DNA of 64,000 nt. It comes from Pseudoxanthomonas sp. PXM01 (lineage in GTDB: Bacteria; Pseudomonadota; Gammaproteobacteria; Xanthomonadales; Xanthomonadaceae). Under the pieces are notes generated by a model. That model had not been told where the DNA came from, did not search any database, and saw only the letters and a list, made by a program, of their open reading frames with translations. The stretch lies in contig NZ_JACVAJ010000001.1 in the NCBI RefSeq assembly GCF_014851815.1, forward strand, positions 124,001 through 188,000, in the 5' to 3' direction. Positions 19,004 to 32,382 of the stretch are shown piece by piece. The translations under genes and the position numbers were made by a program. The first letter of the stretch is position 1, and each line of letters opens with the position of its first letter.

Positions 19004-19720
19004 CTACTTCGCTTTCGCCGGTGCTTTCCTTCCCGTGGCCTTCGCGGCGCGGGTAGCGGGCGCCGCGGGTTCTTTCGCCTTGCGCTGCTGTGCGGCGCTC
19101 TCTTCGCCGTGCAGCGTCATCAGGGATTCCAGCAACTGCTCGTCCGAGCTGGAGCAGACGCCGAGCAGCAAGACTTCGTCGCAGCCCTCGGCCGCGATGT
19201 ACGCGTGGCCCATGTTGGAGTCGATGTAGACCGACTGGCCGGTCTCGAGCACGATCGGGTCGTAGAACTCGGTATGGACTTCCATGCGTCCTTCGAGGAC
19301 ATGGATGTATTCCTCGCCGGAGTGGTGGACCAGTTCGCCGAACTCCTCGATCGTCTTCGCGCGCACGCGGGTCAGTACCGGGATCATGCGCTTCCGGCGC
19401 AGTTCCGGGCACAGGTAGAAGTAGTCGTAGTTGGGCGTGGTGACGCGGATAGCGTCCTCGATCCGCCCGATGCTGCGGCGTGCGGTCACCGGCGGTTCCA
19501 CGTTCTCCACGTCCTCGGCGAACAGTTCCGACATCCGCAGCTGCAGGCGCTGCGCCAGTTGCAGCAGCTTGTCGTAGGTCAGCGTGAGGCGGTCGTGCTC
19601 GACTTTAGACAGCGTCGAAAGCGGGATACCCGCGTGCTCGCTCATCTGCTTGAGCGTCCATCCCTTGCGCGCGCGCAGGGAGCGCAGCAGGCCGCCGATG
19701 GTGGGGTGTTGTGACGTCAT
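19004..19720 (-). CDS. XRE-family regulator with cupin sensor domain
   Basis: 238 residues. The helix-turn-helix (about 10-65) has LRARKGWTLKQMSEHAGIPLSTLSKVE. The C-terminal cupin barrel (about 115-200) has HHSGEEYIHVLEGRMEVHTEFY and a later SNMGHAYIA motif, giving the histidines and glutamate for metal or ligand binding. The tail is Lys/Ala-rich. This is the PuuR/SutR architecture that usually senses a small nitrogen or sulfur compound. The start at 19720 fits the family; an upstream ATG at 19777 adds unrelated residues. The gene is divergent from the catabolic locus and 130 bases from a palindrome that recurs before the TonB receptor gene, so it is the prime candidate repressor. Confidence 0.9.
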   Translation of the reverse strand: MTSQHPTIGGLLRSLRARKGWTLKQMSEHAGIPLSTLSKVEHDRLTLTYDKLLQLAQRLQLRMSELFAEDVENVEPPVTARRSIGRIEDAIRVTTPNYDYFYLCPELRRKRMIPVLTRVRAKTIEEFGELVHHSGEEYIHVLEGRMEVHTEFYDPIVLETGQSVYIDSNMGHAYIAAEGCDEVLLLGVCSSSDEQLLESLMTLHGEESAAQQRKAKEPAAPATRAAKATGRKAPAKAK

Positions 19721-19850
19721 CCTTGCGGGATCTCCTGGGACCCGATGCTTCTGCTGGCGTATCCAGCACGGCGGCATGATCGCCTTCCGGCAGGGTCGCG
19801 GGAAGGGGCGAGCGGTTCAAGCGCTGCCGGCGCCTGACGTTCGGCACGGG

Positions 19851-19892
19851 TTGACAATTCTCTGATTAGGATCATTATCGCCGAATCAGGAT
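19851..19892 (+). promoter_or_regulatory. Promoter with overlapping operator before the first serine hydrolase gene
   Basis: TTGACA at 19851-19856 and CATTAT at 19873-19878 (16-base spacer) form a sigma-70 promoter. An inverted repeat CTGATT (19862-19867) / AATCAG (19884-19889) overlaps spacer and -10, as expected for a repressor site. The first 29 bases match the site at 26063 with one difference. Confidence 0.75.
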
Positions 19893-19961
19893 ACATCTGC
19901 CAGCGCGCCGTCGGGCGCGGACCGGCCCTCCGTTCCCTCGTTCCAGTCGGGAGATCGTTCG

Positions 19962-21986
19962 ATGCGTGCGATTCATCAGATCCTGTGCGGCGCCATGCTG
20001 ACCGCCCTGGTGTCCTTGCCGTTGCTGGCCCAGGACGCCACGTCCCCCACGGCGATACCGCCTGCGCCCGTTGCCGCGGCGCCGGACAACGGCGTGTCCG
20101 CCACCACGGAGACGCCGTCGACGCCTGCAGGCGTGCCGGTCCTCACCCGTGAGGATGTCGGTGCCTGGCTCGATGGCTTCCTGCCTTATGCCTTGGCCAA
20201 CGGCGACATCGCCGGTGCCGTGGTCGTGGTGGTGAAGGATGGGCAGGTGCTGGTGCAGAAGGGCTACGGCTACGCCGACCTCGCCAAGCGCACACCGGTC
20301 GATCCGGATGCCACGCTGTTCCGGCCGGGCTCGGTGTCCAAGCTGTTCACCTGGACCGCGGTGATGCAGCTGGTGCAGGCCGGCAAGCTCGACCTCGATG
20401 CGGACGTAAACCAGTACATCGATTTCAAGATTCCCGCCCGCGACGGCAAGCCGGTGACGCTGCGCCAGGTGATGACGCACACCACCGGCATGGAAGAGCA
20501 GATCCGCGGCCTGATCACCGCGAAGCAGGACGAGATCACGTCGCTCGGCGATGCGCTGAAGCACTGGACGCCGGAACGCATCCATGTGCCGGGCGCCACG
20601 CCGGCGTACTCGAACTACGCCACTGCGCTGGCCGGCTACATCGTCGAGCGCGTGTCGGGGCAGTCGTTCGATGACTACCTCGACGGCCACATCTTCAAGC
20701 CACTCGGGATGAACCACTCAAGCTTCCGTCAGCCGCTGGCGCCGGCGCTGCTGGAGGGCATGTCGAAGGGGTACTCGAAAGCGTCGGAAGGCGAGCCCAA
20801 GGACTACGAGTTCATCAGCCTGTCGCCCGCAGGCAGCCTGGCGGCGACGGGGTCGGACATGGCGCGCTTCATGATCGCGCACCTGCAGGACGGCGCATTC
20901 GGCGACGCGCGCATCCTCGATGCGGCGACCGCGGAGAAGATGCATTCGACCGGACAGGCCTCGGTCGGACCACTGAACCGGATGATGCTTGGCTTCTACG
21001 AGACCACGGTGAACGGCCATCGCGCGATCTCGCACGGCGGCGACACGCAGTGGTTCCATAGCGACCTGCAGCTGTTCCTGGACGACGGCATCGGCCTGTT
21101 CGTCTCGATGAACAGTTCCGGCCGCGATGGCGCGACCGGCCACATCCGCTACGCGCTGTCGCGCGGCTTCGCCGACCGCTACCTGCCTGGCACGCCGGCC
21201 AAGCCGGTGGGCGTGTCGAAGGAAGATGCCACGGTGCACGCCGCGCAACTTGCCGGTACCTATACCAGCAGCCGCCGTCCCGATACCAATTTCGTGTCGC
21301 TGGCCAACCTGCTGGGTCCGATCAAGGTGGTCGCCAACGAAGACGGCACCATCAGCGTGACCGCCGCCATGGGCGTCGGCGGCGCGCCGAAGAAGTGGCG
21401 CGAGATCGCGCCGTACGTGTGGCAGGACACCAGCAGCACCGATCGCCTTGCGGCTGACGTCGTCGATGGCAAGGTGACGCGCTTCAGCATGGAGCCGTAC
21501 GCGCCGATCATGGTGTTCGAGCGCCTGTCGGCCTGGCGCGCGCTGTCGATGCCGCTGCTGGTCGCCAGTCTGGCGGTGCTGCTGTTGACGGTGATCGCGT
21601 GGCCGGTGTCGGCGCTGGTGCGCCGCTACTACGGCGTGCGCTATGCACTGGATGGCATCGACGCGCGTGCGCATCGCCTCGTCCGTATCGGCGCGCTGCT
21701 ATCGCTGCTGGCGACGGCCGCCGCGCTGGGCCTGGTGGTCGGCATGCTGAGCAAGCTGGAGATGACCAGTCCGGGCAGCGATGGCCTGATCATCGCGATG
21801 CGCCTGTTCGCCACCGTCGCGCTGCCGCTCGGGGCCGGCATCGCGGTCTGGAATGCGTGGCATGTGCTGCGTGGCCGTCGTAAATGGCTGGCGAAGCTGT
21901 GGGCACTGCTGCTGGCGCTGGCCTGCCTGTTCCTGCTGTGGATCGGCTTCGCGCACCACGTGATCGGGTTCGGCGCGAACTACTGA
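19962..21986 (+). CDS. Exported serine hydrolase (beta-lactamase/D-aminopeptidase family) with C-terminal membrane domain
   Basis: 674 residues. A signal peptide (about 1-23) and Pro/Ala/Thr linker lead into a penicillin-binding-type serine hydrolase (about 60-400): nucleophile SxxK in GSVSKLF, YxN as AYSNYA, and the third motif as SHGGD. The C-terminal 170 residues hold three or four hydrophobic helices that anchor it in the inner membrane with the catalytic domain in the periplasm. The family includes esterases, D-aminopeptidases and D-Ala-D-Ala peptidases. First gene of the catabolic locus, with a good GGGAG ribosome-binding site and the operator-promoter at 19851. In this context action on D-residue peptides is plausible but inferred. 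Confidence 0.88.
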   Translation: MRAIHQILCGAMLTALVSLPLLAQDATSPTAIPPAPVAAAPDNGVSATTETPSTPAGVPVLTREDVGAWLDGFLPYALANGDIAGAVVVVVKDGQVLVQKGYGYADLAKRTPVDPDATLFRPGSVSKLFTWTAVMQLVQAGKLDLDADVNQYIDFKIPARDGKPVTLRQVMTHTTGMEEQIRGLITAKQDEITSLGDALKHWTPERIHVPGATPAYSNYATALAGYIVERVSGQSFDDYLDGHIFKPLGMNHSSFRQPLAPALLEGMSKGYSKASEGEPKDYEFISLSPAGSLAATGSDMARFMIAHLQDGAFGDARILDAATAEKMHSTGQASVGPLNRMMLGFYETTVNGHRAISHGGDTQWFHSDLQLFLDDGIGLFVSMNSSGRDGATGHIRYALSRGFADRYLPGTPAKPVGVSKEDATVHAAQLAGTYTSSRRPDTNFVSLANLLGPIKVVANEDGTISVTAAMGVGGAPKKWREIAPYVWQDTSSTDRLAADVVDGKVTRFSMEPYAPIMVFERLSAWRALSMPLLVASLAVLLLTVIAWPVSALVRRYYGVRYALDGIDARAHRLVRIGALLSLLATAAALGLVVGMLSKLEMTSPGSDGLIIAMRLFATVALPLGAGIAVWNAWHVLRGRRKWLAKLWALLLALACLFLLWIGFAHHVIGFGANY

Positions 21987-21993
21987 CTTCCCG

Positions 21994-22025
21994 CGGCCGA
22001 CGGCATGCGCCGTCGGCCGTCTTTT
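21994..22025 (+). terminator. Intrinsic terminator inside the catabolic locus
   Basis: Perfect 11-bp stem (21994-22004 with 22009-22019), 4-base loop, then TCTTTT. It lies 8 bases past the first hydrolase stop and only 25 bases before the enolase start, so downstream genes need read-through or another promoter. Confidence 0.85.
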
Positions 22026-22049
22026 GGCCTGTTCCTGCGCGAGGCTGCC

Positions 22050-23051
22050 GTGCCCGTCGAACTCCAGCTGCACAACGAACCATTGCCGCTGTCCGCGCCG
22101 TTCCGCATCTCGGGGCACGTGTTCGAGGCCATGCCGGCGACGGTGGTGACGCTGCGCGATGGCCCGCACATCGGCCGCGGCGAGGCCGCCGGCGTCTACT
22201 ACAACAACGACCACCCCGAGACGATGCTGGCGACGCTGGAAGCGTTGCGGCCGCGCATCGAAGCGGGCCTCGACCGCGACACGCTGCGCTCGCTGCTCCC
22301 GCCGGGTGGTGCGCGCAATGCATTGGACTGCGCGCTGTGGGAACTGGAATCGCAACGCAGCGGACAACCGGTGTGGTCGCTTGCGGGGTTGCCGAGCGTG
22401 TCGCCGCTGCTGACCACATTCACCGTGGGGGCCGACGAACCCGGGACGATGGCCGAGCGCGCCGCTGCCTATGCGCAGGCGCGTGCATTGAAGTTGAAGC
22501 TGACCGGCGACGCGACGCTCGACGCGGCGCGCGTACGCGCGGTGCGGGCCCGCTGTCCGGACCCGTGGATCGGCGTCGACGCCAACCAGGGCTATACCGG
22601 TGCGACGCTGCCGTCGCTGCTGCCGGTCCTGGTCGAGGCGCGGGTATCGCTGCTGGAACAGCCGTGCGCGCGCGGCAGCGAGAACGAACTGGACGGCGTC
22701 GAGCGTGCACTCCCGTTCGCGGCCGACGAGAGCATCCTCGATCTGGCCGAACTGGAAGAATGGCATCACCGCTTCGACGTCATCAACATCAAGCTGGACA
22801 AGTGCGGTGGCCTCACCGAAGGCCTGATGATGGCGCGGCGCGCCCGCGAGCTCGGCAAGCGCGTCATGGTGGGCAACATGGCCGGCACCAGCCTGGCGGC
22901 GGCCCCGGCGTTCGTACTGGGACAGTACTGCGATGTCGTCGACCTCGATGGCCCGGTCTTCCTGGTCCGCGACCGCGTGCCGTCGGTGCGCTACGAAAAC
23001 GGGCTCATCCATTGCGGCGACGAGGTATGGGGGCCGAAGACGAGCGCATGA
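22050..23051 (+). CDS. Enolase-superfamily racemase, dipeptide epimerase / DgcA-like
   Basis: 333 residues from a GTG start preceded by GAGG; an in-frame ATG at 22005 lies in the loop of the terminator and is rejected. The muconate-lactonising subgroup residues are all present: the KxK pair K148/K150, metal ligands D177, E203 and D226, and K248 in the IKLDKxGG strand. A DxD pair (D298/D300) near the end is the feature that binds substrate in L-Ala-D/L-Glu epimerases. Two readings fit: epimerisation of murein-type dipeptides, or racemisation of N-acetyl-D-glutamate (DgcA). The DUF1611 gene at 28597 favours the second. The stop overlaps the permease start (ATGA). Confidence 0.85.
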   Translation: MPVELQLHNEPLPLSAPFRISGHVFEAMPATVVTLRDGPHIGRGEAAGVYYNNDHPETMLATLEALRPRIEAGLDRDTLRSLLPPGGARNALDCALWELESQRSGQPVWSLAGLPSVSPLLTTFTVGADEPGTMAERAAAYAQARALKLKLTGDATLDAARVRAVRARCPDPWIGVDANQGYTGATLPSLLPVLVEARVSLLEQPCARGSENELDGVERALPFAADESILDLAELEEWHHRFDVINIKLDKCGGLTEGLMMARRARELGKRVMVGNMAGTSLAAAPAFVLGQYCDVVDLDGPVFLVRDRVPSVRYENGLIHCGDEVWGPKTSA

Positions 23052-24322
23052 ATGCATCGGTCGGCGTGCAGGAGAAAACCTGGTTCGGCCAGCCCCGCGG
23101 GCTGACCATCCTGTTCCTGACCAACATGTGGGAGCTGTTTTCCTACTACGGCATGCGCACGCTGCTGGTCTACTACATGACCAAGCAACTGCTGTTCGCA
23201 CAGGAGAAAGCGTCCTTCATCTATGGCGTCTACACGGCGATGGCGTACTTCACGCCCATCATCGGTGGCGCCATCGCGGACCGCTGGCTCGGCAAGCGCA
23301 ACGCGGTGATCCTCGGCGGTACCATCATGGCCTTCGGGCACTTCGTGATGGCGTTCGAGCCGATGTTCTACGTGGCGCTGGCGACCATCGCGCTCGGCAA
23401 TGGCCTGTTCCTGCCCAGCCTGCCCAGCCAGATCAACGATCTCTACGCCGCCGACGATCCGCGTCGCGGTCGCGCCTACAACGTCTATTACGTCGGGCTG
23501 AACATCGGTGGCTTCCTCGCGCCGCTGGTGTGCGGCACGCTCGGCGAGCTGTACGGATGGCACTACGGCTTCGGTGCGGCCGGCATCGGCATGTTCCTGG
23601 GACTGATGATCTACGTCGTCGGTCGCCGGTACCTGCCGCCGGAGCCATCGCGGCTGGCGGTTCCGTCTGCCGGACTCGCCGGCGCGCGCGCGACGCCGTC
23701 CTACGCCGTGTGGTGGCTGCTGCTCGGCGTCGGCATCGCGGCCACGATCTTCCGCGGTGCTTACGAGCAGGTAGGCAACACGCTGCCGTTGCTGATCGAC
23801 ACCGGCGTGGACCGCGTCGTCGCCGGCTTCACCATTCCGATGACGTGGTTCCAGTCGCTCAACCCGTTGCTGGTGATCAGCATGACGCCGCTGTTGCTGC
23901 TGCACTGGCGGCGTCGCGCGGATGCCGGTCGCGACACGTCGCCGGCCTTGAAGATGGCGATCGGCGCGCTGATCGTCGCCGTGGCCTACGTCATGTTGGC
24001 GGCGCTGAGCGCGTGGACAGGCGACGCGCGCATCGGCTGGGGATGGCTGGTGGTGTTCTTCGTCGTGCTCACGCTGGGTGAGCTGTACATCCTGCCGACA
24101 GGGCTCGGCCTGTTCGCGAAGCTCGCGCCCCCGCGGCTGGGTGCCACCACCGTGGCGTCCTGGTTCCTGGCGGTCTTCAGTGGCAGCCTGCTGGCCGGCC
24201 TGGTGGGCACGTTGTGGTCGAAGACCAGCCATGCCGGCTTCTTCCTGCTGCTTGCGGGCCTGGCCATCGTCGCCGCGATCCTGCTGTGGCGGCTGGACCG
24301 CCCGATCCGCTCAATGCACTGA
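23048..24322 (+). CDS. POT/PTR-family peptide permease
   Basis: 424 residues with about 12 membrane helices, short for bacterial POT transporters, which usually have 14. The N-terminal helix carries the POT signature region MWELFSYYGMRTLLVYYM, and YVGLNIGGFLAP matches helix 5. The proton-coupling ExxER motif is degenerate: the first Glu is Asn and the Arg is Leu (NMWEL). It probably imports di- or tripeptides or a related small molecule across the inner membrane, feeding the enolase whose gene it overlaps by four bases. Coupling chemistry may differ from canonical members. Confidence 0.88.
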   Translation: MNASVGVQEKTWFGQPRGLTILFLTNMWELFSYYGMRTLLVYYMTKQLLFAQEKASFIYGVYTAMAYFTPIIGGAIADRWLGKRNAVILGGTIMAFGHFVMAFEPMFYVALATIALGNGLFLPSLPSQINDLYAADDPRRGRAYNVYYVGLNIGGFLAPLVCGTLGELYGWHYGFGAAGIGMFLGLMIYVVGRRYLPPEPSRLAVPSAGLAGARATPSYAVWWLLLGVGIAATIFRGAYEQVGNTLPLLIDTGVDRVVAGFTIPMTWFQSLNPLLVISMTPLLLLHWRRRADAGRDTSPALKMAIGALIVAVAYVMLAALSAWTGDARIGWGWLVVFFVVLTLGELYILPTGLGLFAKLAPPRLGATTVASWFLAVFSGSLLAGLVGTLWSKTSHAGFFLLLAGLAIVAAILLWRLDRPIRSMH

Positions 24323-24336
24323 CCCGGAGAACCGAC

Positions 24337-26049
24337 ATGACGCGACTCACGCCCCGCCTGCTGTTCCTTGCGCTCTTCGCCTCCGGCTCGACACTGGCCG
24401 CACCCGCCGAGCGCTACGACCTGCTGATCCGCAACGGCGTGGTGTACGACGGCAGTGGCGGCGCACCGCAGCGGGTCGATGTGGCGGTGAAGGACGATCG
24501 TGTCGTCGCGCTGCTGCCGGCCGGCCAGGCGGCCGCGGCCGATCAGGTGCTCGACGCAAAGGGCATGGCGGTCGCGCCGGGTTTCATCAACGTGCTGAGC
24601 TGGGCGACCGAGTCGCTGATCGCGGACGGCCGTGGCATCAGCGATACCAAGCAGGGCGTGACGCTGGAGATATTCGGCGAAGGCTGGTCGATGGGGCCGG
24701 TCAATCCGCGCATGAAGGCGGATGCGCTGAAGCAGCAGGTCGACATCCGCTACGACATCCCGTGGACCACGCTGGGCGGCTACCTCGAACACCTGCAGCA
24801 GCGTGGCGTCACGCCGAACATTGCCTCGTTCGTCGGTGCGACGACCGTGCGCATCCACGAACTGGGCGAGGACGATGTCGATCCCACGCCCGAGCAACTG
24901 GCGCGCATGCAGGACGTGGTGCGGCAGGCGATGCGCGAAGGTGCGCTGGGCGTCGGCAGCTCGCTGATCTATCCGCCGGCCGCGTTCGCCGACACGAACG
25001 AACTGATCGCGTTGGCGAAGGCGGCCGGTGAATCCGGTGGCGGCTACATCTCGCACATGCGCAGCGAAGCGGACCGCTTCCTGGAAGCCATCGATGAAAC
25101 GATCTCGATCGCCCGCGCCACCGGCCAGCGTGCCGAGGCCTACCATCTGAAGGCCGCCGGCGAGAAGAACTGGCCGAAGATGCAGCAGGCCATCGACCGG
25201 ATCAACGCGGCGCGCGACGCGGGCCTGCAGGTCAGCGCCGACATGTACGTCTACACCGCCGGTGCGACCGGGCTGACCGCCAGCCTGCCGCCGTGGGTGC
25301 AGGCCGGCGGGCACGACGCGATGATCCAGCGTCTCAAGGATCCCGCGATCCGCGCACGGGTGATCGCCGAAATGCGCGACCCCAACGTGTCCTGGGAAAA
25401 CCTGCGCCTGCTCGCCGGTTCGGACGAGCGGCTGTTGCTGATCGAGTTCAAGAGCGACGCGCTGAAGCCGCTCGGCGGCAAGACGCTGGCGGCGATCGCA
25501 CGTGAGCGCGGCACGCCGGTCGAGGACACGGCGATCGATCTGATCATCGAGGACGACCATCGCATCGGCACCGCCTACTTCCTGATGAGCGAAGAGAACA
25601 TCGAGCTCGGCCTGAAGCAGCCGTGGGTCAGCCTGGGATCGGATGCGGAGTCGTCGGCGCCGGAAGGCGTCTTCCTCAAGTCGAGCACGCATCCGCGCGC
25701 CTACGGCAACGTCGCGCGCTTCCTTGGCCACTACGTGCGCGACCGCAAGCTGATGCCGCTGGAGGAGGGCATCCATCGCCTGACCGGCCTGCCGGCCGCG
25801 AACTGGAAGCTCAAGGATCGCGGCTGCCTGCAGGCCGGCTGCTACGCCGACATCGTGGTGTTCGATCCGGCGACCATCGCCGACCGCGCGACCTACGACC
25901 GGCCGCAGCAGTACGCGACAGGCGTCAGCGAGGTGTTCGTCAACGGTGTGCAGGTGTTGCGTCAGGGCGAACACACCGGCGCGACGCCGGGCCGTGTGGT
26001 GCGCGGGCCCGGTTGGACAGGGAAGGTCGACGATACCGCTCGTCGATGA
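24337..26049 (+). CDS. Exported D-aminoacylase-like amidohydrolase (N-acyl-D-amino-acid deacylase family)
   Basis: 570 residues. A signal peptide (about 1-20) ends before the amidohydrolase fold, which starts YDLLIRNGVVYDGSG. The start has a GGAGA ribosome-binding site. Family landmarks present: VAPGFI, QGVT, the histidine in GYISHMRSEAD, EAYHLKAAG, the metal aspartate in LGSDAE, and the HPRAYG segment. The metal-binding HxH after PGFID is missing (PGFINVLSWATESL), and the GNCG cysteine is replaced in GEGWS. A mononuclear or altered active site is therefore expected. Known relatives free D-amino acids from N-acyl forms; export suggests periplasmic processing of such substrates. The lost motif makes activity uncertain. 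Confidence 0.82.
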   Translation: MTRLTPRLLFLALFASGSTLAAPAERYDLLIRNGVVYDGSGGAPQRVDVAVKDDRVVALLPAGQAAAADQVLDAKGMAVAPGFINVLSWATESLIADGRGISDTKQGVTLEIFGEGWSMGPVNPRMKADALKQQVDIRYDIPWTTLGGYLEHLQQRGVTPNIASFVGATTVRIHELGEDDVDPTPEQLARMQDVVRQAMREGALGVGSSLIYPPAAFADTNELIALAKAAGESGGGYISHMRSEADRFLEAIDETISIARATGQRAEAYHLKAAGEKNWPKMQQAIDRINAARDAGLQVSADMYVYTAGATGLTASLPPWVQAGGHDAMIQRLKDPAIRARVIAEMRDPNVSWENLRLLAGSDERLLLIEFKSDALKPLGGKTLAAIARERGTPVEDTAIDLIIEDDHRIGTAYFLMSEENIELGLKQPWVSLGSDAESSAPEGVFLKSSTHPRAYGNVARFLGHYVRDRKLMPLEEGIHRLTGLPAANWKLKDRGCLQAGCYADIVVFDPATIADRATYDRPQQYATGVSEVFVNGVQVLRQGEHTGATPGRVVRGPGWTGKVDDTARR

Positions 26050-26062
26050 TTCTCTGTTTGTA

Positions 26063-26103
26063 TTGACAATTCTCTGATTGGGATCATTATCCCTGATCAG
26101 GAT
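26063..26103 (+). promoter_or_regulatory. Promoter with overlapping operator before the TonB receptor gene
   Basis: TTGACA at 26063-26068 and CATTAT at 26085-26090 with a 16-base spacer. A better dyad than its twin: CTGAT/ATCAG (26074-26078, 26096-26100) enclosing GGGAT/ATCCC (26080-26084, 26089-26093). An extra ATTCTCTG copy lies exactly 20 bases upstream, at 26049. Confidence 0.78.
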
Positions 26104-26178
26104 GTCGCATGACCCGGCCGGGGGCCGGCGCGGCGTCCAGACCACCGCAGACCCTTTAAGTCGCCCGGGAGAACAGGC

Positions 26179-28539
26179 ATGACCCAGTTCCAGTCCGCAC
26201 GGCCGTGGTACCGCAAGCAACTCTCCCTGGCGATCGCCGGCGCACTGGCGTGTTCCGTCGCGCCGGCCCTGGCGCAGGATGCCGCCACGACGCAGCCTGA
26301 CGGCGCCAGCGCCGACGCGACCAACCTCGATACCGTCGTCGTCACCGCCAACAAGCGCGTGGAGAACGTCCGCGACGTCGGCGCGTCGATCAGCGTGATC
26401 GGCGAGCGGCAGCTGGAGAACATCGGTGCCGTGTCGCTATCGGACTACGCCGCCTTCATCCCCGGCCTGCAGGTGCAGAACGACGGCAGTCCCGGCCTGA
26501 CGCGCATCTCGCTGCGGGGTGTCGCCGCGCTGTCGTCGGGCGCCACGGTCGCCACCTACATCGATGAAGTGCCGGTGGGCTCCAGCGGCATCTACCAGGG
26601 CGCGAGCACGCTGATGCTCGATCTGCTGCCCTACGACGTCAGCCGGGTCGAGGTGCTGCGCGGGCCGCAGGGTACGCTGTATGGTGCCGGCGCCATCGGT
26701 GGCCTGCTCAAATACGTGACCCGCGAGCCCGAGCTGTCCACGACCGAGGCGCGCGTGGGTGTGGGTGTGCGCAGCGTGCAGGGCGGCGACCAGGCGCTGA
26801 ACCTGCGCTTCGGCGCCAGCGTGCCGTTGAAGGACGACCGACTCGGCTTGCGGATGAGCTTCGCGCGCAACGAGATCGCGGCATTCACCGACAACGCCGT
26901 CGATGGGCGCGAGGACATCAACGGCGGCAGTCAGCTCGGCGCGCGCACGGCGCTGTCGTGGGACGGCGATAAGGTCGATCTGGATCTCGGTGTCCTGCAC
27001 CAGCGCATCCGCAGCGACGACCGCGCCGGCGTGGCGCTGGATCCGGACACCCAGCAGCCGCTGTTCGGCGATGACGACGACCTGGCCTGGCAGCCGCGCC
27101 CGTTCTCGAAGGAGCTGACCCTGGTCTCGCTCGGCCTGGATTGGGAGCTGGGCTGGGGCAATTTCATTTCGGGGACCGGCTGGTCGCAGACCGATACCCT
27201 CGACCAGATCGATTCGACCGTGCAGTTCGGCGAAGTCGCGGACGGTCTGCTGGGGCTGCCCGAGCCGGGCAGCTCTTTCGTGCGCTACAGCTTCGACATG
27301 GAGAAGGTCACGCAGGAGTTCCGCCTGCAGTCGAAGGGCGGCGGTACCTTCGAATGGATGGTCGGCGCGTTCTACACCAAGGAGGATGCGCTGCAGAGCC
27401 AGTTCGCATGGCTGGGCCAACGGGATGGCACGCCATTGCCGGCGCCGTACGACGACATGTTCGGCACGCTGGCGATCATCAACCTGCCCAGCACCTACAA
27501 GGAATACGCGCTGTTCGCCAACGGCTCATGGCGGTTCGGCGAGCGCTTCAAGATCGATGCGGGCCTGCGCCAGGCACGCAACGACCAGTGGTTCAGCCAG
27601 AACGTGCCCACGGGCATCCTGGCGCCGATCGGCGAAACGCCCGGCGACTCCAGCGAGGACGTGTTCACCTGGAGCCTCAGCCCGCAGTACCGGTTCTCGG
27701 ACGACGTCATGGTCTATGCGCGCGTGGCGACCGGTTATCAACCGGGCGGTCCGAACGTGGCGCTGGCCGGCATGCCGCCGCAGGTCGACTCGTCGATGCT
27801 CGACAGCTACGAGATCGGCCTGAAATCGCAGTTCGCCGACCGTCGCGTGACGTTGGACCTCTCGGCGTTCCGGATCGACTGGGAGGACATCCAGGTGGCG
27901 TCTTCGTTCAACGGCGTCGGCGGTCTGGTCAATGGCGGCGAGGCCACCAGCGAAGGTGTGGAACTGTCTTCGCAGTTCCGCGTGACGGATGCGCTGACGC
28001 TGGGTCTGAATGCGGCCTACACCGATGCGAGCATCAAGAACGATTTCGAGCCGACGGTGATCCCGCAATACGACGAGGACGGAGACCCCGCGTTCGACGT
28101 GATCCTGTGGACGGGCCTCGCCGGCGATCGCATGCCGTACTCGCCGAAGCTGTCCTGGACGGCGACAGCCGAGTACGCATTCTCGACGGCGGGCGGCGTC
28201 AGCGGGCAGGTGGGTGCCGCGCTGCGCGGCGTGGGGAAGCGCGTCAACGACACCACCGAGCGGCAACGCGTCACCGCACCGGGTGAGCCGGACACGCTGC
28301 TGGTGCCGGACGACATCACGGCGCCGCTGCAGCTGCGCAGCTACCGTGCTCTCGACCTGTACGCCGGCATCGGCAAGGGCAACTGGGAGCTGCGTGCCTA
28401 CGCCAACAACGTCACCGGCGAGAAGGCGTGGTCGACCCTGGCGCCGATGGACGGCGCACTGACCGGCACGCGGTCGCACCTGGCCGGGGTACCGATCCAG
28501 CCACGCAGCTTCGGTCTGGAAATCGATTTCCGCTTCTGA
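26179..28539 (+). CDS. TonB-dependent outer-membrane receptor
   Basis: 786 residues. The signal peptide (about 1-33, ending ALAQ) precedes a TonB box DTVVVTAN at about 50-57. The plug domain (about 60-175) contains SISVIG, ISLRGVA and VEVLRGPQGTLYGAGAIGG; a 22-strand barrel follows and ends in the terminal Phe of EIDFRF, the usual outer-membrane assembly signal. It actively imports a substrate using the proton motive force. Its position among peptide and D-amino-acid genes, and its copy of the locus operator, suggest peptides or N-acyl-amino acids rather than siderophores. It has its own promoter and ribosome-binding site (GGGAG). Confidence 0.95.
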   Translation: MTQFQSARPWYRKQLSLAIAGALACSVAPALAQDAATTQPDGASADATNLDTVVVTANKRVENVRDVGASISVIGERQLENIGAVSLSDYAAFIPGLQVQNDGSPGLTRISLRGVAALSSGATVATYIDEVPVGSSGIYQGASTLMLDLLPYDVSRVEVLRGPQGTLYGAGAIGGLLKYVTREPELSTTEARVGVGVRSVQGGDQALNLRFGASVPLKDDRLGLRMSFARNEIAAFTDNAVDGREDINGGSQLGARTALSWDGDKVDLDLGVLHQRIRSDDRAGVALDPDTQQPLFGDDDDLAWQPRPFSKELTLVSLGLDWELGWGNFISGTGWSQTDTLDQIDSTVQFGEVADGLLGLPEPGSSFVRYSFDMEKVTQEFRLQSKGGGTFEWMVGAFYTKEDALQSQFAWLGQRDGTPLPAPYDDMFGTLAIINLPSTYKEYALFANGSWRFGERFKIDAGLRQARNDQWFSQNVPTGILAPIGETPGDSSEDVFTWSLSPQYRFSDDVMVYARVATGYQPGGPNVALAGMPPQVDSSMLDSYEIGLKSQFADRRVTLDLSAFRIDWEDIQVASSFNGVGGLVNGGEATSEGVELSSQFRVTDALTLGLNAAYTDASIKNDFEPTVIPQYDEDGDPAFDVILWTGLAGDRMPYSPKLSWTATAEYAFSTAGGVSGQVGAALRGVGKRVNDTTERQRVTAPGEPDTLLVPDDITAPLQLRSYRALDLYAGIGKGNWELRAYANNVTGEKAWSTLAPMDGALTGTRSHLAGVPIQPRSFGLEIDFRF

Positions 28540-28544
28540 CCATG

Positions 28545-28568
28545 CGCCGCCCGCGCGAGCGGGTGGCG
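28545..28568 (+). terminator. Hairpin between the TonB receptor and DUF1611 genes
   Basis: 10-bp stem with one G-U pair (28545-28554 with 28559-28568) and 4-base loop, followed by TCGTCC, a poor U tract. More likely an attenuating or RNA-stabilising structure than a full terminator. Confidence 0.45.
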
Positions 28569-28596
28569 TCGTCCTCCCCGGATCCGGGCACCGCGC

Positions 28597-29649
28597 ATGC
28601 AGACCGCCGTTCCGTCGTCGCTCGACGCCGACATGCTTCCGCAGCCGTACCTGCTGTTCCTCGGCGATACCGTCGAACCCAGCTATGCGAAGACCGCGTT
28701 CGGCCTGCGCGACTGGGCGCGCGAGCGCTGTGTGGGCGAATTCGCCTGCGACACGGTCGCGGTCACGACGGGATTGCCGTTCCTGTCGCCGGCACAGGCC
28801 CGGCAGGCGGGCGCACGCGCGATGGTCATCGGTGTCGCCAATCCGGGCGGACGCATTCCGGCGACCTGGATCCCGTTGCTGATCCAGGCGCTGGAGTCGG
28901 GCCTGGACCTGATCGGCGGCATGCACATGCGGCTGTCGGGCATCGAGCCGTTGCGCAACGCCGCGCGTGCGCTGGGCAGGCGCCTGATCGACGTGCGCGA
29001 TCCGCCCGCCCACATTCCCGTTGCCAGCGGCGCCAAGCGCACCGGCAATCGCCTGCTGACCGTGGGTACCGATTGCGCACTCGGCAAGAAGTACACGGCA
29101 CTGGCGCTCACGCGCGCATTCCGGGCGCGTGGCGTCGATGCCGACTTCCGTGCCACCGGCCAGACCGGGATCCTGATCGCCGGCGCTGGCGTCCCGATGG
29201 ATGCGGTGGTGGCCGATTTCGCCGCCGGTGCCGCCGAGACGCTGTCGCCCGATGCGGCGGCCGGGCACTGGGACGTCATCGAAGGGCAGGGCTCGCTCTC
29301 GCACCCAGCCTACGCAGGCGTCTCGCTGGCGTTGCTGCACGGCAGCCAGCCGGACGTGATCGTGGTCTGCCATGAGTACGGCCGCGAGCGTGTGCTCGGT
29401 TATCCACACTATCCGCTGCCGTCGATCGAGGACACCGTCGCGCTCGCATTGACGCTGGGCGCCCGCACCAATCCCGCCATCCGTTGCGCGGGCATCAGCG
29501 TCAACACCGCCCGGCTCGAGGCCGAGGCTGCCGGCCACGTCCTCGCGGCGATGGCGGATCGCCTCGGCCTGCCGGTCGCCGATCCGATCCGCGGAGGCGA
29601 TGCATTCACCGCACTGGTCGACGCCTGCCTGGCGCGTGGCGTACGTTGA
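28597..29649 (+). CDS. DUF1611 protein, DgcN-like D-glutamate N-acetyltransferase
   Basis: 350 residues. The N-terminal Rossmann-like half (about 17-135) contains GVANPGG and a GMHMRL segment. The C-terminal half has a P-loop-like GTDCALGKKYT at 157-167, then ATGQTG, DVIEGQGSLSHP and HEYGR, all conserved in DUF1611. Members called DgcN acetylate D-glutamate, and DgcA then racemises the product to N-acetyl-L-glutamate. Both partners are in this locus. The start is uncertain: ATG at 28597 or 28633, neither with a strong ribosome-binding site. It is followed 4 bases later by the YkvI-like gene. Confidence 0.85.
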   Translation: MQTAVPSSLDADMLPQPYLLFLGDTVEPSYAKTAFGLRDWARERCVGEFACDTVAVTTGLPFLSPAQARQAGARAMVIGVANPGGRIPATWIPLLIQALESGLDLIGGMHMRLSGIEPLRNAARALGRRLIDVRDPPAHIPVASGAKRTGNRLLTVGTDCALGKKYTALALTRAFRARGVDADFRATGQTGILIAGAGVPMDAVVADFAAGAAETLSPDAAAGHWDVIEGQGSLSHPAYAGVSLALLHGSQPDVIVVCHEYGRERVLGYPHYPLPSIEDTVALALTLGARTNPAIRCAGISVNTARLEAEAAGHVLAAMADRLGLPVADPIRGGDAFTALVDACLARGVR

Positions 29650-29653
29650 ACCG

Positions 29654-30793
29654 ATGAGCGCCATGCCGACGCGGTTCCAGCGCTGGATCCTGCCCGGGCT
29701 CGCCTTCAAGGCGGCGGTGATCGGCGGCGGCTACGCGACCGGCCGGGAACTGGCGGAATACTTCATTCCCAGTGGTCCGCAGGGCGGAATGCTGGCGATC
29801 CTAGCAGCGATGGCGTGCTGGAGCCTGGTCTGCGCGCTGACCTTCACGCTGGCGCATGCGACCCGAAGCGTCGACTACCGCAGCTTCTTCGCCGTCCTGC
29901 TCGGGCGCTTCGCGTTCGTGTTCGAACTGGCGTACCTGGTGTTCATGGTGCTGATCCTGGCGGTGTTCGGCGCGGCTGCCGGCGAGATCTTCGCGGCATT
30001 GCTGGGCTGGCCGAAGCTGGTGGGTACGCTGTTGCTGATGATGGGCATCGGCGCCTTCGCCGCCTACGGCAACGACACCGTCGAAGCGTTGTTCAAGTGG
30101 GTATCGGTGTTCCTCTACGGCATCTATGCCGCGTTCGTACTGATCGTGCTGGCCGGCTTCGGCGACCGCGCACTCGCCACGCTGTCCACGCCGCTGCCGA
30201 CCACGGGCTGGCTGCAGGGCGGGCTGACCTACGCCGGCTACAACATCGTCGGCGCGGTGATCGTGCTGCCGCTGGTGCGGCATTTCATCGACAGGCGCGA
30301 TGCGGTGATCGCGGGCGTGCTGTCCGGGCCGCTGGCGATGCTGCCGGGGCTGCTGTTCTTCCTGTGCATGTTGGCGTGGTACCCGCAGATCGGTGACGAA
30401 GCCCTGCCGTCGGACTTTATCCTGCGCCAGCTCGACATGCCGGTTTTCCATGTGCTGTTCCAGTTGATGATCTTCAGTGCGTTGCTGGAAAGCGGAACGG
30501 CCGTGGTGCATGCCGCCAACGAACGGATCGCGCACGCGTGGCACAGCCGTCGCAGCAGCCGTCTTGGCAAGCGTGTGCGCCTGGCCATCGCCAGCGTGCT
30601 GCTGGTCGGTTCGATCTTCATCGCCGACCGCGTCGGCCTGGTGGCGTTGATCGCCCAGGGCTACCGCGGGCTGGCCTATCTGTTCCTTGCGGTCTACGTC
30701 CTGCCGCTGTTGACGGTCGGTGCCTGGCGGCTGTGGCGCGGTCCTGCTGCTGTCGCCATGCCGGCGCCCACCCTGTCCGGAGATCGTCCATGA
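29654..30793 (+). CDS. YkvI-family membrane protein, probable amino-acid transporter
   Basis: 379 residues with about ten hydrophobic helices. The first helix contains a GGGYATGREL break, the unwound Gly-rich pattern of LeuT-fold transporters, which matches the YkvI family. No transport substrate is established from sequence. It is sandwiched between the DgcN-like gene (4-base gap) and a serine hydrolase (ATGA overlap), so uptake or export of an amino acid made or used by this pathway, such as glutamate, is the natural guess. Confidence 0.78.
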   Translation: MSAMPTRFQRWILPGLAFKAAVIGGGYATGRELAEYFIPSGPQGGMLAILAAMACWSLVCALTFTLAHATRSVDYRSFFAVLLGRFAFVFELAYLVFMVLILAVFGAAAGEIFAALLGWPKLVGTLLLMMGIGAFAAYGNDTVEALFKWVSVFLYGIYAAFVLIVLAGFGDRALATLSTPLPTTGWLQGGLTYAGYNIVGAVIVLPLVRHFIDRRDAVIAGVLSGPLAMLPGLLFFLCMLAWYPQIGDEALPSDFILRQLDMPVFHVLFQLMIFSALLESGTAVVHAANERIAHAWHSRRSSRLGKRVRLAIASVLLVGSIFIADRVGLVALIAQGYRGLAYLFLAVYVLPLLTVGAWRLWRGPAAVAMPAPTLSGDRP

Positions 30794-32382
30794 ACGTTTC
30801 CCTGAAAACGGCGTTCGCCGCCGTCCTGATGGCATGGCTGTGCGCGGCGACACCTTCGCACGCGCAGGTGCCCGCAGGATTCGACGCTCGGGTCGAGCAG
30901 GCCATGCGTTCGCGCGACGTGCCGGGGATGGCGATCTCGATCGTCAAGGACGGCCGGATCGTGCATGCGAAAGGCTATGGCGTGCGTCGGCTGGGCGGTA
31001 GCGAGCCGGTGGATGCGGACACGATCTTCCCGACCGGATCCACCGGCAAGGCGGTGACCGCGGCGGCTCTCGCCATCCTGATCGACGACGGCAAGCTGTC
31101 GTGGGACGCCAAGGTGGCCGACCACCTGCCGGATTTCCGCATGTACGACGCCTGGGTCACGCGCGAGATGACCGTCGCCGACCTGCTGCTGCACCGGAGC
31201 GGCCTTGGCCTCGGGGCGGGCGACCTGCTGTTCATTCCGCGCACGTCGCGCAGTCGCGCGGACATCGTGCGTGCCTTGCGGCACATCAAGCCGGCCACCA
31301 GCTTTCGCAGCGGCTATGCCTACGACAACATCCTGTACATCGTGGCCGGCGAACTGGTGGCCCAGGTCAGCGGGCAGCCATGGGAGGACTTCGTGCGCAC
31401 GCGCATCTTCCAGCCGCTCGGCATGACGACCGCCGTCAGCGACGAGGAGGACCGTTTCGCCAACCCGAACCGCGTGCAGCCGCATGCGCGGCTCGACGCA
31501 CGCCTGCGCGGCCTGGGTCCGCAGCAGGTGCTGCCGGAACGCGAAGGCCTGGGCCAGGTGGGTGCGCCGGCCGGTGGCCTGTCGTGGAGCGCGAAGGACT
31601 TCGCGCGCTGGGTGCAGGCGCAACTCGCGCTCGGCGCGCTGCCCGACGGCAAGGGGCGCATCTACAGTGAAGCGTCCGCGCATGCCATGTGGACGCCGCA
31701 GGTGACGATTCCGATCCGACCGTATCCGGCGCCGATCACCGACATGACGCCGCAGTTCTCCGGCTATGGCTATGGCTGGAACGTGCAGGACTACCGTGGT
31801 GTCAAGGTGGTGCAGCACGGCGGCGCGGTATTCGGTGTCCTCGCCTTCGTCGTGCTGGTGCCAGAGCGCAACCTCGGCATCGCGCTGCAGATCAATTCGG
31901 AGGACGTCGAGGTGATGCGTGGCCTGGGCTACGAACTGCTCGACCACTACCTGGGCTTCGAGGCGCGCGACTGGGTCGGGGCGTTCTCCACCTGGAACCA
32001 GGCGCGGCTGGCGGGCGGGTTGGAAGCGCTGCAGGGCATGAAGGGCGCCACGCGCAACGCCGCCTCGCGACCCTCCCTGAAGCCCGCCGGTTATGCCGGC
32101 GACTACAGGGACGCGTGGTACGGCCCGATCACCATCGCCGAGCATGCAGGCAAGCTGCGCGTCGACTTCCGGCAGACGCCCAACATGGCGGGCACGCTGA
32201 GCCACTGGCAGTACGACACGTTCCGCGTGGACTGGGACGATGCCTCGGTCGAGCCGGCCTACATGACGTTTTCGCTCGACGCCGATGGGCGCGCACGGCG
32301 CATCACGATGAAGGCGGTGTCGCCGTTGGCGGATTTCAGCTACGACTATCACGACCTTCTTTTCGAGGCCTCGGGGCCCTGA
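30790..32382 (+). CDS. Exported serine hydrolase (beta-lactamase family) with C-terminal lipocalin-like domain
   Basis: 530 residues. A signal peptide (about 1-26, ending AHAQ) is followed by a beta-lactamase-type hydrolase (about 30-370): SxxK in GSTGKAV, YxN in AYDNIL, and HGGA as the third motif. The last 110 residues form a beta-rich domain (DUF3471 type: YAGDYRDAWYGPITI) common in this family. There is no membrane anchor, so it is soluble periplasmic, unlike the first hydrolase of the locus. Last gene of the plus-strand block; the start overlaps the permease stop. Likely substrates are small esters, amides or D-residue peptides. Confidence 0.88.
   Translation: MNVSLKTAFAAVLMAWLCAATPSHAQVPAGFDARVEQAMRSRDVPGMAISIVKDGRIVHAKGYGVRRLGGSEPVDADTIFPTGSTGKAVTAAALAILIDDGKLSWDAKVADHLPDFRMYDAWVTREMTVADLLLHRSGLGLGAGDLLFIPRTSRSRADIVRALRHIKPATSFRSGYAYDNILYIVAGELVAQVSGQPWEDFVRTRIFQPLGMTTAVSDEEDRFANPNRVQPHARLDARLRGLGPQQVLPEREGLGQVGAPAGGLSWSAKDFARWVQAQLALGALPDGKGRIYSEASAHAMWTPQVTIPIRPYPAPITDMTPQFSGYGYGWNVQDYRGVKVVQHGGAVFGVLAFVVLVPERNLGIALQINSEDVEVMRGLGYELLDHYLGFEARDWVGAFSTWNQARLAGGLEALQGMKGATRNAASRPSLKPAGYAGDYRDAWYGPITIAEHAGKLRVDFRQTPNMAGTLSHWQYDTFRVDWDDASVEPAYMTFSLDADGRARRITMKAVSPLADFSYDYHDLLFEASGP

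What the first reader, a model, noticed from the sequence alone, without database searches (positions are those of the whole stretch)
19004..32382. Candidate D-glutamate / D-amino-acid peptide scavenging locus embedded in chemotaxis genes
Seen: an uninterrupted locus with an XRE-cupin regulator, two exported serine hydrolases, an enolase-type racemase, a POT permease, a D-aminoacylase-like amidohydrolase, a TonB-dependent receptor, a DUF1611 protein and a YkvI-type permease. Known: DUF1611 (DgcN, D-Glu N-acetyltransferase) and a dipeptide-epimerase relative (DgcA, N-acetyl-D-Glu racemase) form a D-glutamate catabolic route described in marine bacteria and haloarchaea. Inferred: here the route is joined to outer-membrane capture, periplasmic hydrolysis and peptide import, making a dedicated pathway for peptidoglycan-type D-residue peptides in a xanthomonad. 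I know of no description of this whole combination.
Basis: partly seen in the sequence, partly recalled or inferred. Interest (0 to 1): 0.85.

Follow-up and report, generated by a model that had tools for sequence, protein, structure and literature searches.

The report
Self-regulated D-peptide scavenging gene locus
Nine neighbouring genes in a Pseudoxanthomonas-like bacterium look like one jointly switched unit that probably captures, cuts, imports and inverts mirror-image amino acids from peptides, and its peptide permease groups with the presumed permease of bacteria that break down the algal toxin microcystin.

Summary
Window 19004-32382 carries the nine named genes, between chemotaxis genes. 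It is more than chance: of 34 other strong DUF1611 neighbourhoods in the family, 24 belong to the same DUF1611 clade and 20 of these keep the core gene order; the set recurs in Sphingomonadales, also on plasmids. A 28-bp promoter/operator-like element occurs exactly twice (<=3 mismatches) in the 4.18-Mb genome, before each of the two gene runs; in 298 sphingomonad genomes 28 of 32 copies lie within 12 kb of this DUF1611 clade. So it reads as one regulon, though only 28 of 69 such loci there carry a copy.

The DgcN/DgcA label is only partly right: both genes miss the curated cut-offs (444 of 480; 345.5 of 400 bits), lie in a separate clade, and the epimerase lacks the RGx(R/K) loop motif. The D-aminoacylase lacks the HxH metal motif and the POT lacks the Arg of ExxER. 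Best reading: a TonB-dependent utilisation locus for D-residue peptides; substrate perhaps, not certainly, D-Glu. Unexpected: MlrD, the presumed microcystin-pathway permease, groups with these POTs (99/96) and also lacks that Arg.

The parts
19004..19777 (-). XRE-cupin regulator (an internal ATG at 19720 may be the true start)
   Evidence: HTH_19/HTH_31 and Cupin_2 over cut-off; divergent from SerH1, 184-bp gap
19851..19878 (+). promoter/operator-like element, site 1, upstream of SerH1
   Evidence: 0 mismatches to the 28-bp consensus; G000:C4:143851; 32 of 38 XRE-SerH1 gaps (window included) match at <=3 mismatches, 0 of 38 shuffled
19962..21986 (+). SerH1, exported beta-lactamase-fold serine hydrolase with C-terminal TM helices
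   Evidence: PF00144 218 bits; SVSK and YSN motifs, signal-like N-terminus, four C-terminal hydrophobic segments
22005..23051 (+). enolase-superfamily epimerase, DgcA/YcjG relative
   Evidence: NF042940 345.5 (cut-off 400), NF011708 203 (343); catalytic residues and DxD kept, RGx(R/K) loop motif absent
23048..24322 (+). POT-family peptide permease without the Arg of ExxER
   Evidence: TIGR00924 295.7 bits over cut-off 130.2; NMWELF; groups with MlrD 99/96
24337..26049 (+). exported D-aminoacylase-like amidohydrolase lacking HxH
   Evidence: Amidohydro_3; similar to D-aminoacylase structures 1rjp/3gip and to 9g5m; NVLSW for HxH, Glu for Cys, two His and Asp kept; signal-like N-terminus
26063..26090 (+). 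promoter/operator-like element, site 2, between D-aminoacylase-like gene and TonB receptor gene
   Evidence: G000:C4:150063, 1 mismatch; the only other copy in the genome at <=3 mismatches
26179..28539 (+). TonB-dependent outer-membrane receptor
   Evidence: PF00593 and PF07715
28597..29649 (+). DUF1611 protein, in a clade separate from the NCBIfam-passing DgcN proteins
   Evidence: NF041892 444.1 bits, cut-off 480; trees
29654..30793 (+).
   Evidence: model pLDDT 89.1; 6f2g E 1e-6, AdiC 5j4n E 2.6e-6; no family model
30790..32382 (+). SerH2, exported beta-lactamase-fold serine hydrolase with DUF3471
   Evidence: PF00144 216 and PF11954 92 bits; STGK and YDN motifs, signal-like N-terminus

Best explanation
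The locus is one regulon of two operons (SerH1-epimerase-POT-D-aminoacylase; TonB receptor-DUF1611-permease-SerH2) switched by its own XRE-cupin regulator, which probably binds the 28-bp element overlapping each promoter and senses a breakdown product through its cupin domain. The TonB receptor takes a peptide with D-residues across the outer membrane; the exported serine hydrolases and the D-aminoacylase-like enzyme (in other lineages an M19 dipeptidase) cut it; the POT permease and the LeuT-fold permease import dipeptides or single acylated or free D-amino acids; in the cytoplasm the DUF1611 protein acylates the D-amino acid and the enolase-type enzyme inverts it, giving an L-form for catabolism. 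Shown: genes, conserved set, shared element, signal-like sequences and folds, retained catalytic residues. Inferred: binding of the element, every reaction, the direction of transport. The substrate is probably a particular kind of D-residue peptide rather than ordinary L-Ala-D-Glu, because three proteins lack motifs that their relatives use for substrate or metal binding.
For: Conserved gene set and order. Element at both operon heads and nowhere else in the genome at <=3 mismatches; in G063 and G123 the second copy also lies before the receptor gene, in G032 before the M19 gene; 28 of 32 sites in 298 genomes within 12 kb of a clade-a DUF1611 gene, 3 of the other 4 beside a SerH1 gene, reversed-pattern control 0. 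An M19 dipeptidase is present in 17 of 62 loci. Another permease stands in 5 of 62 loci, never together with the POT; two of these were checked and are DUF819. Catalytic residues kept in both serine hydrolases, epimerase, DUF1611 P-loop.
Against: No assay and no transcript data. 6 of 38 XRE-SerH1 gaps match the element poorly (4-11 mismatches); only 28 of 69 clade-a DUF1611 loci in 298 sphingomonad genomes carry a site; one of ten genomes chosen for (G149) has none. 24 of 62 loci have neither D-aminoacylase-like nor main-type M19 gene, so that step is not obligatory. The HxH-less amidohydrolase could be altered or dead.
Confidence: 0.6

Rival explanations
1. One reading: the cytoplasmic pair is simply DgcN-DgcA, so the locus feeds D-glutamate from peptidoglycan fragments through N-acetyl-D-Glu to L-Glu. 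(Nested in the best explanation; differs in fixing the substrate.)
For: The genome's only full-length DUF1611 gene sits with its epimerase; same families; DxD of dipeptide epimerases kept; the clade-c epimerase, also with a DUF1611 partner below its cut-off, just passes the DgcA cut-off (401.6 v 400), so the cut-offs are not sharp; a Glu/Leu/Phe/Val dehydrogenase gene lies near the cluster on the Croceicoccus plasmid.
Against: Both genes under the equivalog cut-offs while clade-b L051 passes both; clade separate from 7xrj; 20s loop (GHVF for RGxR) and 50s loop (GVYY for VPYARYG) differ from clade b; GltS beside 5 of 22 other-clade loci and 0 of 62 clade-a loci.
Confidence: 0.3
2. A locus for using D-residue natural products (cyanobacterial or nonribosomal peptides) as food, of the same kind as the mlr microcystin cluster.
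For: MlrD groups with the cluster POTs (99/96) and also lacks the ExxER Arg; 23 of 27 best MlrD relatives in 298 genomes lie within 12 kb of a DUF1611 gene; mlr also uses a PF00144 hydrolase, an M19 dipeptidase and an amidohydrolase.
Against: No MlrA or MlrC gene in the locus; MlrF keeps canonical HxH; none of the 30 best MlrE relatives lies near a clade-a DUF1611 gene and one near another DUF1611 gene; the best hits of MlrB in my loci are not SerH1 or SerH2 genes; no element at the mlr cluster.
Confidence: 0.2
3. Recycling or remodelling of the cell's own wall rather than nutrient capture.
For: SerH1 is distantly like AmpH and D-aminopeptidase (76 and 68 bits, cut-offs 266 and 443).
Against: A TonB receptor, plasmid carriage and patchy distribution (strong DUF1611 in 28 of 149 family genomes; clade a by score in 49 of 298 sphingomonads) do not fit a housekeeping role.
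Confidence: 0.07

Closest known systems
DgcN-DgcA D-glutamate pathway (NCBIfam NF041892, NF042940; Yu et al. 2023, known here only from the reference list of PMC12363236)
   Same: DUF1611 protein plus enolase-type racemase; P-loop and catalytic residues kept
   Different: both proteins below the equivalog cut-offs, separate clade, different 20s/50s loops, plus periplasmic and outer-membrane modules and own regulator
L-Ala-D/L-Glu epimerase YcjG (1jpd, NF011708)
   Same: fold, K-x-K/D/E/D/K and DxD
   Different: 203 bits v cut-off 343; RGxR loop motif absent
mlr microcystin-degradation cluster (L183; its MlrC passes NF041767)
   Same: PF00144 hydrolase, POT permease of the same clade also without the Arg; M19 and amidohydrolase families
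   Different: no MlrA/MlrC here; no DUF1611 or epimerase within the mlr genes; MlrF keeps HxH; element absent there
D-aminoacylase / N-acyl-D-Glu deacylase (1rjp, 3gip)
   Same: fold family, two His and the Asp
   Different: HxH replaced by NVLSW; Cys ligand replaced by Glu
POT peptide transporters (DtpA/B, PepT)
   Same: family models
   Different: Arg of ExxER replaced in 34 of 34 cluster-type POTs

Membership tests
DgcN (NF041892) | score over the curated equivalog cut-off (480 bits) | tested here: not met
   444.1 for the window; 450, 464, 433 for three clade-a relatives, 446 and 448.5 for clade c, 520 and 514 for clade b
DgcN (NF041892) | same clade as the NCBIfam-passing proteins and PDB 7xrj | tested here: not met
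   7xrj in clade b (100/96); window in clade a (99/97). That 7xrj is a DgcN is recalled; its entry says putative epimerase/dehydratase
DgcN (NF041892) | DUF1611 P-loop GTDCxxGKxYT | tested here: met
   GTDCALGKKYT
DgcN (NF041892) | acetyl-CoA-dependent N-acetylation of D-Glu | not testable with these tools
   needs assay
DgcA (NF042940) | score over cut-off (400 bits) | tested here: not met
   345.5; 331 for clade-a L035, 401.6 for clade-c L036, 458 for clade-b L051
DgcA (NF042940) | enolase-superfamily catalytic residues and DxD | tested here: met
   K163xK165, D192, E218, D241, K263, D313xD315; the roles are recalled
DgcA / YcjG | 20s-loop RGx(R/K) motif | tested here: not met
   GHVF in the window; RG-type in most clade-b rows, in 1jpd and in 4gfi. 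Its role in binding the Glu side chain is recalled
D-aminoacylase | HxH and Cys metal ligands | tested here: not met
   NVLSW and FGEGW (1rjp alignment)
D-aminoacylase | second-site His, His and catalytic Asp | tested here: met
   SHMRSE, YHLKAAG, GSDAESS; roles recalled
POT permease | family model | tested here: met
   TIGR00924 295.7 v 130.2
POT permease | ExxER motif | tested here: not met
   NMWELF; kept in 20 of 20 non-cluster POTs aligned
MlrD | clade of MlrD with cluster POTs against other POTs | tested here: met
   25 of 42 rows, 99/96; MlrD branch is long (2.55)
mlr microcystin cluster | MlrA and MlrC genes present | tested here: not met
   none among the locus genes
YkvI membrane proteins | named family model | tested here: inconclusive
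   no Pfam or NCBIfam hit; LeuT fold only
XRE-cupin regulators | HTH plus Cupin_2 | tested here: met
   both over cut-off

The most novel reading that the evidence does not exclude
This is one example of a widespread, horizontally moving class of self-regulated D-peptide utilisation loci (up to seven DUF1611 genes in one sphingomonad genome), built from relatives that each lack a textbook binding motif, and it is from this class that the microcystin pathway took its permease MlrD; the cluster POT would then be a candidate for the MlrD-like compensating protein inferred from mlrD knockouts.
Probability: 0.35. Interest if true: 0.8.

Novelty: new variant of a known kind. Interest (0 to 1): 0.62.

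Why it matters
D-amino-acid peptides are part of the slowly used organic matter pool, and a locus with its own regulator, a defined element, a TonB receptor and permeases makes their uptake directly testable. A 2019 paper says in its introduction that the origin of mlrB, mlrC and mlrD was unknown, and itself argues for entry of the whole cluster on a genomic island (PMC6563193, passages). A 2025 knockout study inferred compensating MlrB-/MlrC-/MlrD-like enzymes; the passages I saw name none (PMC12474180). The cluster POT is a concrete candidate for the transporter. POT proteins without the ExxER Arg are also a natural test of models in which that Arg binds the substrate C-terminus (PMC11265797, passages).

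Tried and rejected
Rejected: that the pair is an ordinary DgcN/DgcA (cut-offs and trees). Rejected: that the cluster D-aminoacylase gave MlrF (MlrF keeps HxH). Not supported: MlrE from the cluster; 25 of 72 relatives (>=285 bits) lie within 12 kb of a DUF1611 gene, 24 of them near clade a, but none of the 30 best is near clade a and one (G407) is near another DUF1611 gene. Not supported: MlrB related specifically to SerH1/SerH2. Not supported: the element controlling mlr. The weak DUF1611 hit at G000:C5:1321321 covers profile positions 6-46 only and was dropped. In one search loci with under 7.5 kb before or 5 kb after the DUF1611 gene were dropped, the window was not counted, the threshold was 60 bits within 10.5 kb, and clades were assigned by hand from the tree; the control set is small (22). 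The 38 gaps are those with a divergent XRE-cupin (>200 bits) and SerH1 (>500 bits) less than 700 bases apart. Tree sets were subsets: 42 of 67 POT rows, 42 of 120 DUF1611 rows plus 7xrj. For MlrD the lower tier is the next 30 listed hits (217-163 bits), not all. In one search the 69 clade-a loci are the 68 places over 430 bits plus one of 414. Literature: searches of an open-licence library listed no paper with this gene combination and none tying DUF1611 loci to mlr; most subscription papers are not held.

Papers: PMC4520899 whole text; PMC6563193, PMC12474180, PMC12363236, PMC10845958, PMC11265797, PMC9144602 passages only; Yu et al. 2023 (ISME J) nothing but its reference-list entry. Recalled, from no call: the name YkvI, that 7xrj is a DgcN, the roles of the enolase residues and loops and of the D-aminoacylase ligands, and the sigma-70 reading of the element.
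Full report
What is there. The window is G000:C4:124001-188000 of a 4.18-Mb, 12-contig genome; the nearest named relative returned is Pseudoxanthomonas sp. PXM02, 91% identical in the DUF1611 protein. Nine genes lie at 19004-32382. The ninth, the permease at 29654-30793, has no family model but a confident predicted structure whose best solved matches are APC/LeuT-fold transporters. Both serine hydrolases keep SxxK and YxN; they, the amidohydrolase and the receptor begin with signal-like stretches. Chemotaxis genes flank the locus on both sides.

Is it more than chance. In 149 genomes of the family, strong DUF1611 matches lie at 35 places in 28 genomes. I read the 34 neighbourhoods other than the window's: 24 belong to the window's clade (a), the other 10 to two different clades; 20 of the 24 keep SerH1, epimerase, TBDR, DUF1611 and SerH2 in this order. 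Against 22 loci of other DUF1611 clades, 62 clade-a loci are strongly enriched in the partners.

One regulon. In 38 divergent XRE-cupin/SerH1 gaps (window included) I looked for the stretch TTGACAATTYTCYRATYAGGATCATTAT, first seen by eye: 32 of 38 match with at most 3 mismatches, 17 exactly, 6 with 4 to 11; one shuffle per region gave 0 of 38 at 3 or fewer. It looks like a -35 box with a conserved spacer and a -10-like end (my reading). In the window's genome there are exactly two copies at up to 3 mismatches: 19851-19878 before SerH1 and 26063-26090 before the TonB receptor gene. So the locus reads as two transcription units under one control. Of ten genomes chosen for that search nine have a copy, G149 none. 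In G063 and G123 the second copy also precedes the receptor gene, in G032 the M19 gene. In 298 sphingomonad genomes 32 copies were found in 27 genomes, none with the reversed control pattern; 28 lie within 12 kb of a clade-a DUF1611 gene, three of the other four beside a SerH1 gene, and one was not examined. Against a universal rule: only 28 of 69 clade-a loci there carry a copy. Binding by the regulator is inferred, not shown.

Is it DgcN/DgcA. The DUF1611 protein scores 444.1 (cut-off 480), the epimerase 345.5 (cut-off 400). In clade b, two DUF1611 proteins (L032, L051) and the one epimerase tested (L051) pass; clade c fails the first (446, 448.5) and its one tested epimerase just passes the second (401.6). 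Three clade-b loci (L032, L044, L051) carry a Na+/glutamate symporter and an HxH D-aminoacylase. In a careful tree the solved protein 7xrj falls with clade b and the window with clade a (all 120 rows). The epimerase keeps all catalytic residues and DxD but has neither the RGx(R/K) of the 20s loop nor the VPYARYG of the 50s loop. Membership in the two characterised families is therefore not claimed; working like them is plausible. G063, of the same genus, holds one DUF1611 copy of each of the three clades, which also speaks for different jobs.

Three missing motifs. Of 21 distinct close relatives of the D-aminoacylase-like protein (>=649 bits, window included; duplicates L100, L193, L194 left out) 19 read N(V/M/T)LSW for HxH; L111 and L112 read NMLAH, which keeps one His. 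The Cys ligand is Glu, and the two further His and the Asp stay. More distant amidohydrolases in clade-a loci vary: a DMMDQ/DMLDQ type without HxH (such as L076, L077, L078, L095), and two (L089, L110, 118-119 bits) with HxH. All 34 cluster-type POTs aligned lack the Arg of ExxER; all 20 other POT rows keep ExxER. That Arg contacts the substrate C-terminus in the mammalian transporter (PMC11265797, passages). Together with the epimerase loops this suggests an unusual substrate.

The link to microcystin breakdown. G404 carries an mlr cluster: MlrC 1174 bits over the 999 cut-off of NF041767, a Rce1-like MlrA, POT, PF00144 hydrolase, M19 dipeptidase and amidohydrolase, matching the six genes described for strain C-1 (PMC4520899). 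MlrD groups with the cluster POTs (25 of 42 rows, 99/96) and reads EMWEAF, also without the Arg. In 298 genomes its 27 best relatives (>=285 bits) include 23 within 12 kb of a DUF1611 gene (21 of clade a), against 3 of the next 30 listed (217-163 bits; none of clade a). MlrD's branch is long, and whether it lies inside or beside the cluster POTs is open (AU p 0.12 for the cluster POTs alone as a clade). MlrE, MlrF and MlrB do not show the same link. G404 has seven DUF1611 genes, two of them of clade a by score with the element nearby. MlrD's transport role is itself hypothetical (PMC12474180, passages).

Judgement. I rate it a new variant of a known kind.

Noticed in passing
G404, G247, G363, G160: Four of 298 sphingomonad genomes hold seven DUF1611 genes each, like multiplied utilisation loci.
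   Followed up: partly
L170 10237-23350, L192 8173-17850: The cluster on large plasmids of Croceicoccus marinus and Novosphingobium sp. EMRT-2.
   Followed up: partly
L034 14886-16283, L055 15220-17100 (DUF819); L068 near 4530 (similar): A DUF819 membrane protein stands where other loci have the POT permease; in 62 loci the two kinds (5 and 32) never occur together.
   Followed up: partly
L239 3396-4736 and genes near 13000-15000 in L070, L079, L082, L083, L093, L096, L102: An MlrE-like M19 dipeptidase ends many sphingomonad clusters (22 of 62 clade-a loci have one).
   Followed up: yes
G404:C2:56193-57107 (L238): A lone enolase-type epimerase about 23 kb from the mlr cluster, without a DUF1611 hit beside it.
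   Followed up: no
L227: A rearranged variant locus (permease, DUF1611, TBDR, POT on one strand, XRE-cupin and epimerase on the other) whose POT reads QMWAEF.
   Followed up: partly
L116, L117, L125, L136, L137, L142: The LeuT-fold permease also sits beside DUF1611 genes of other clades, suggesting it carries the DUF1611 substrate or product.
   Followed up: no
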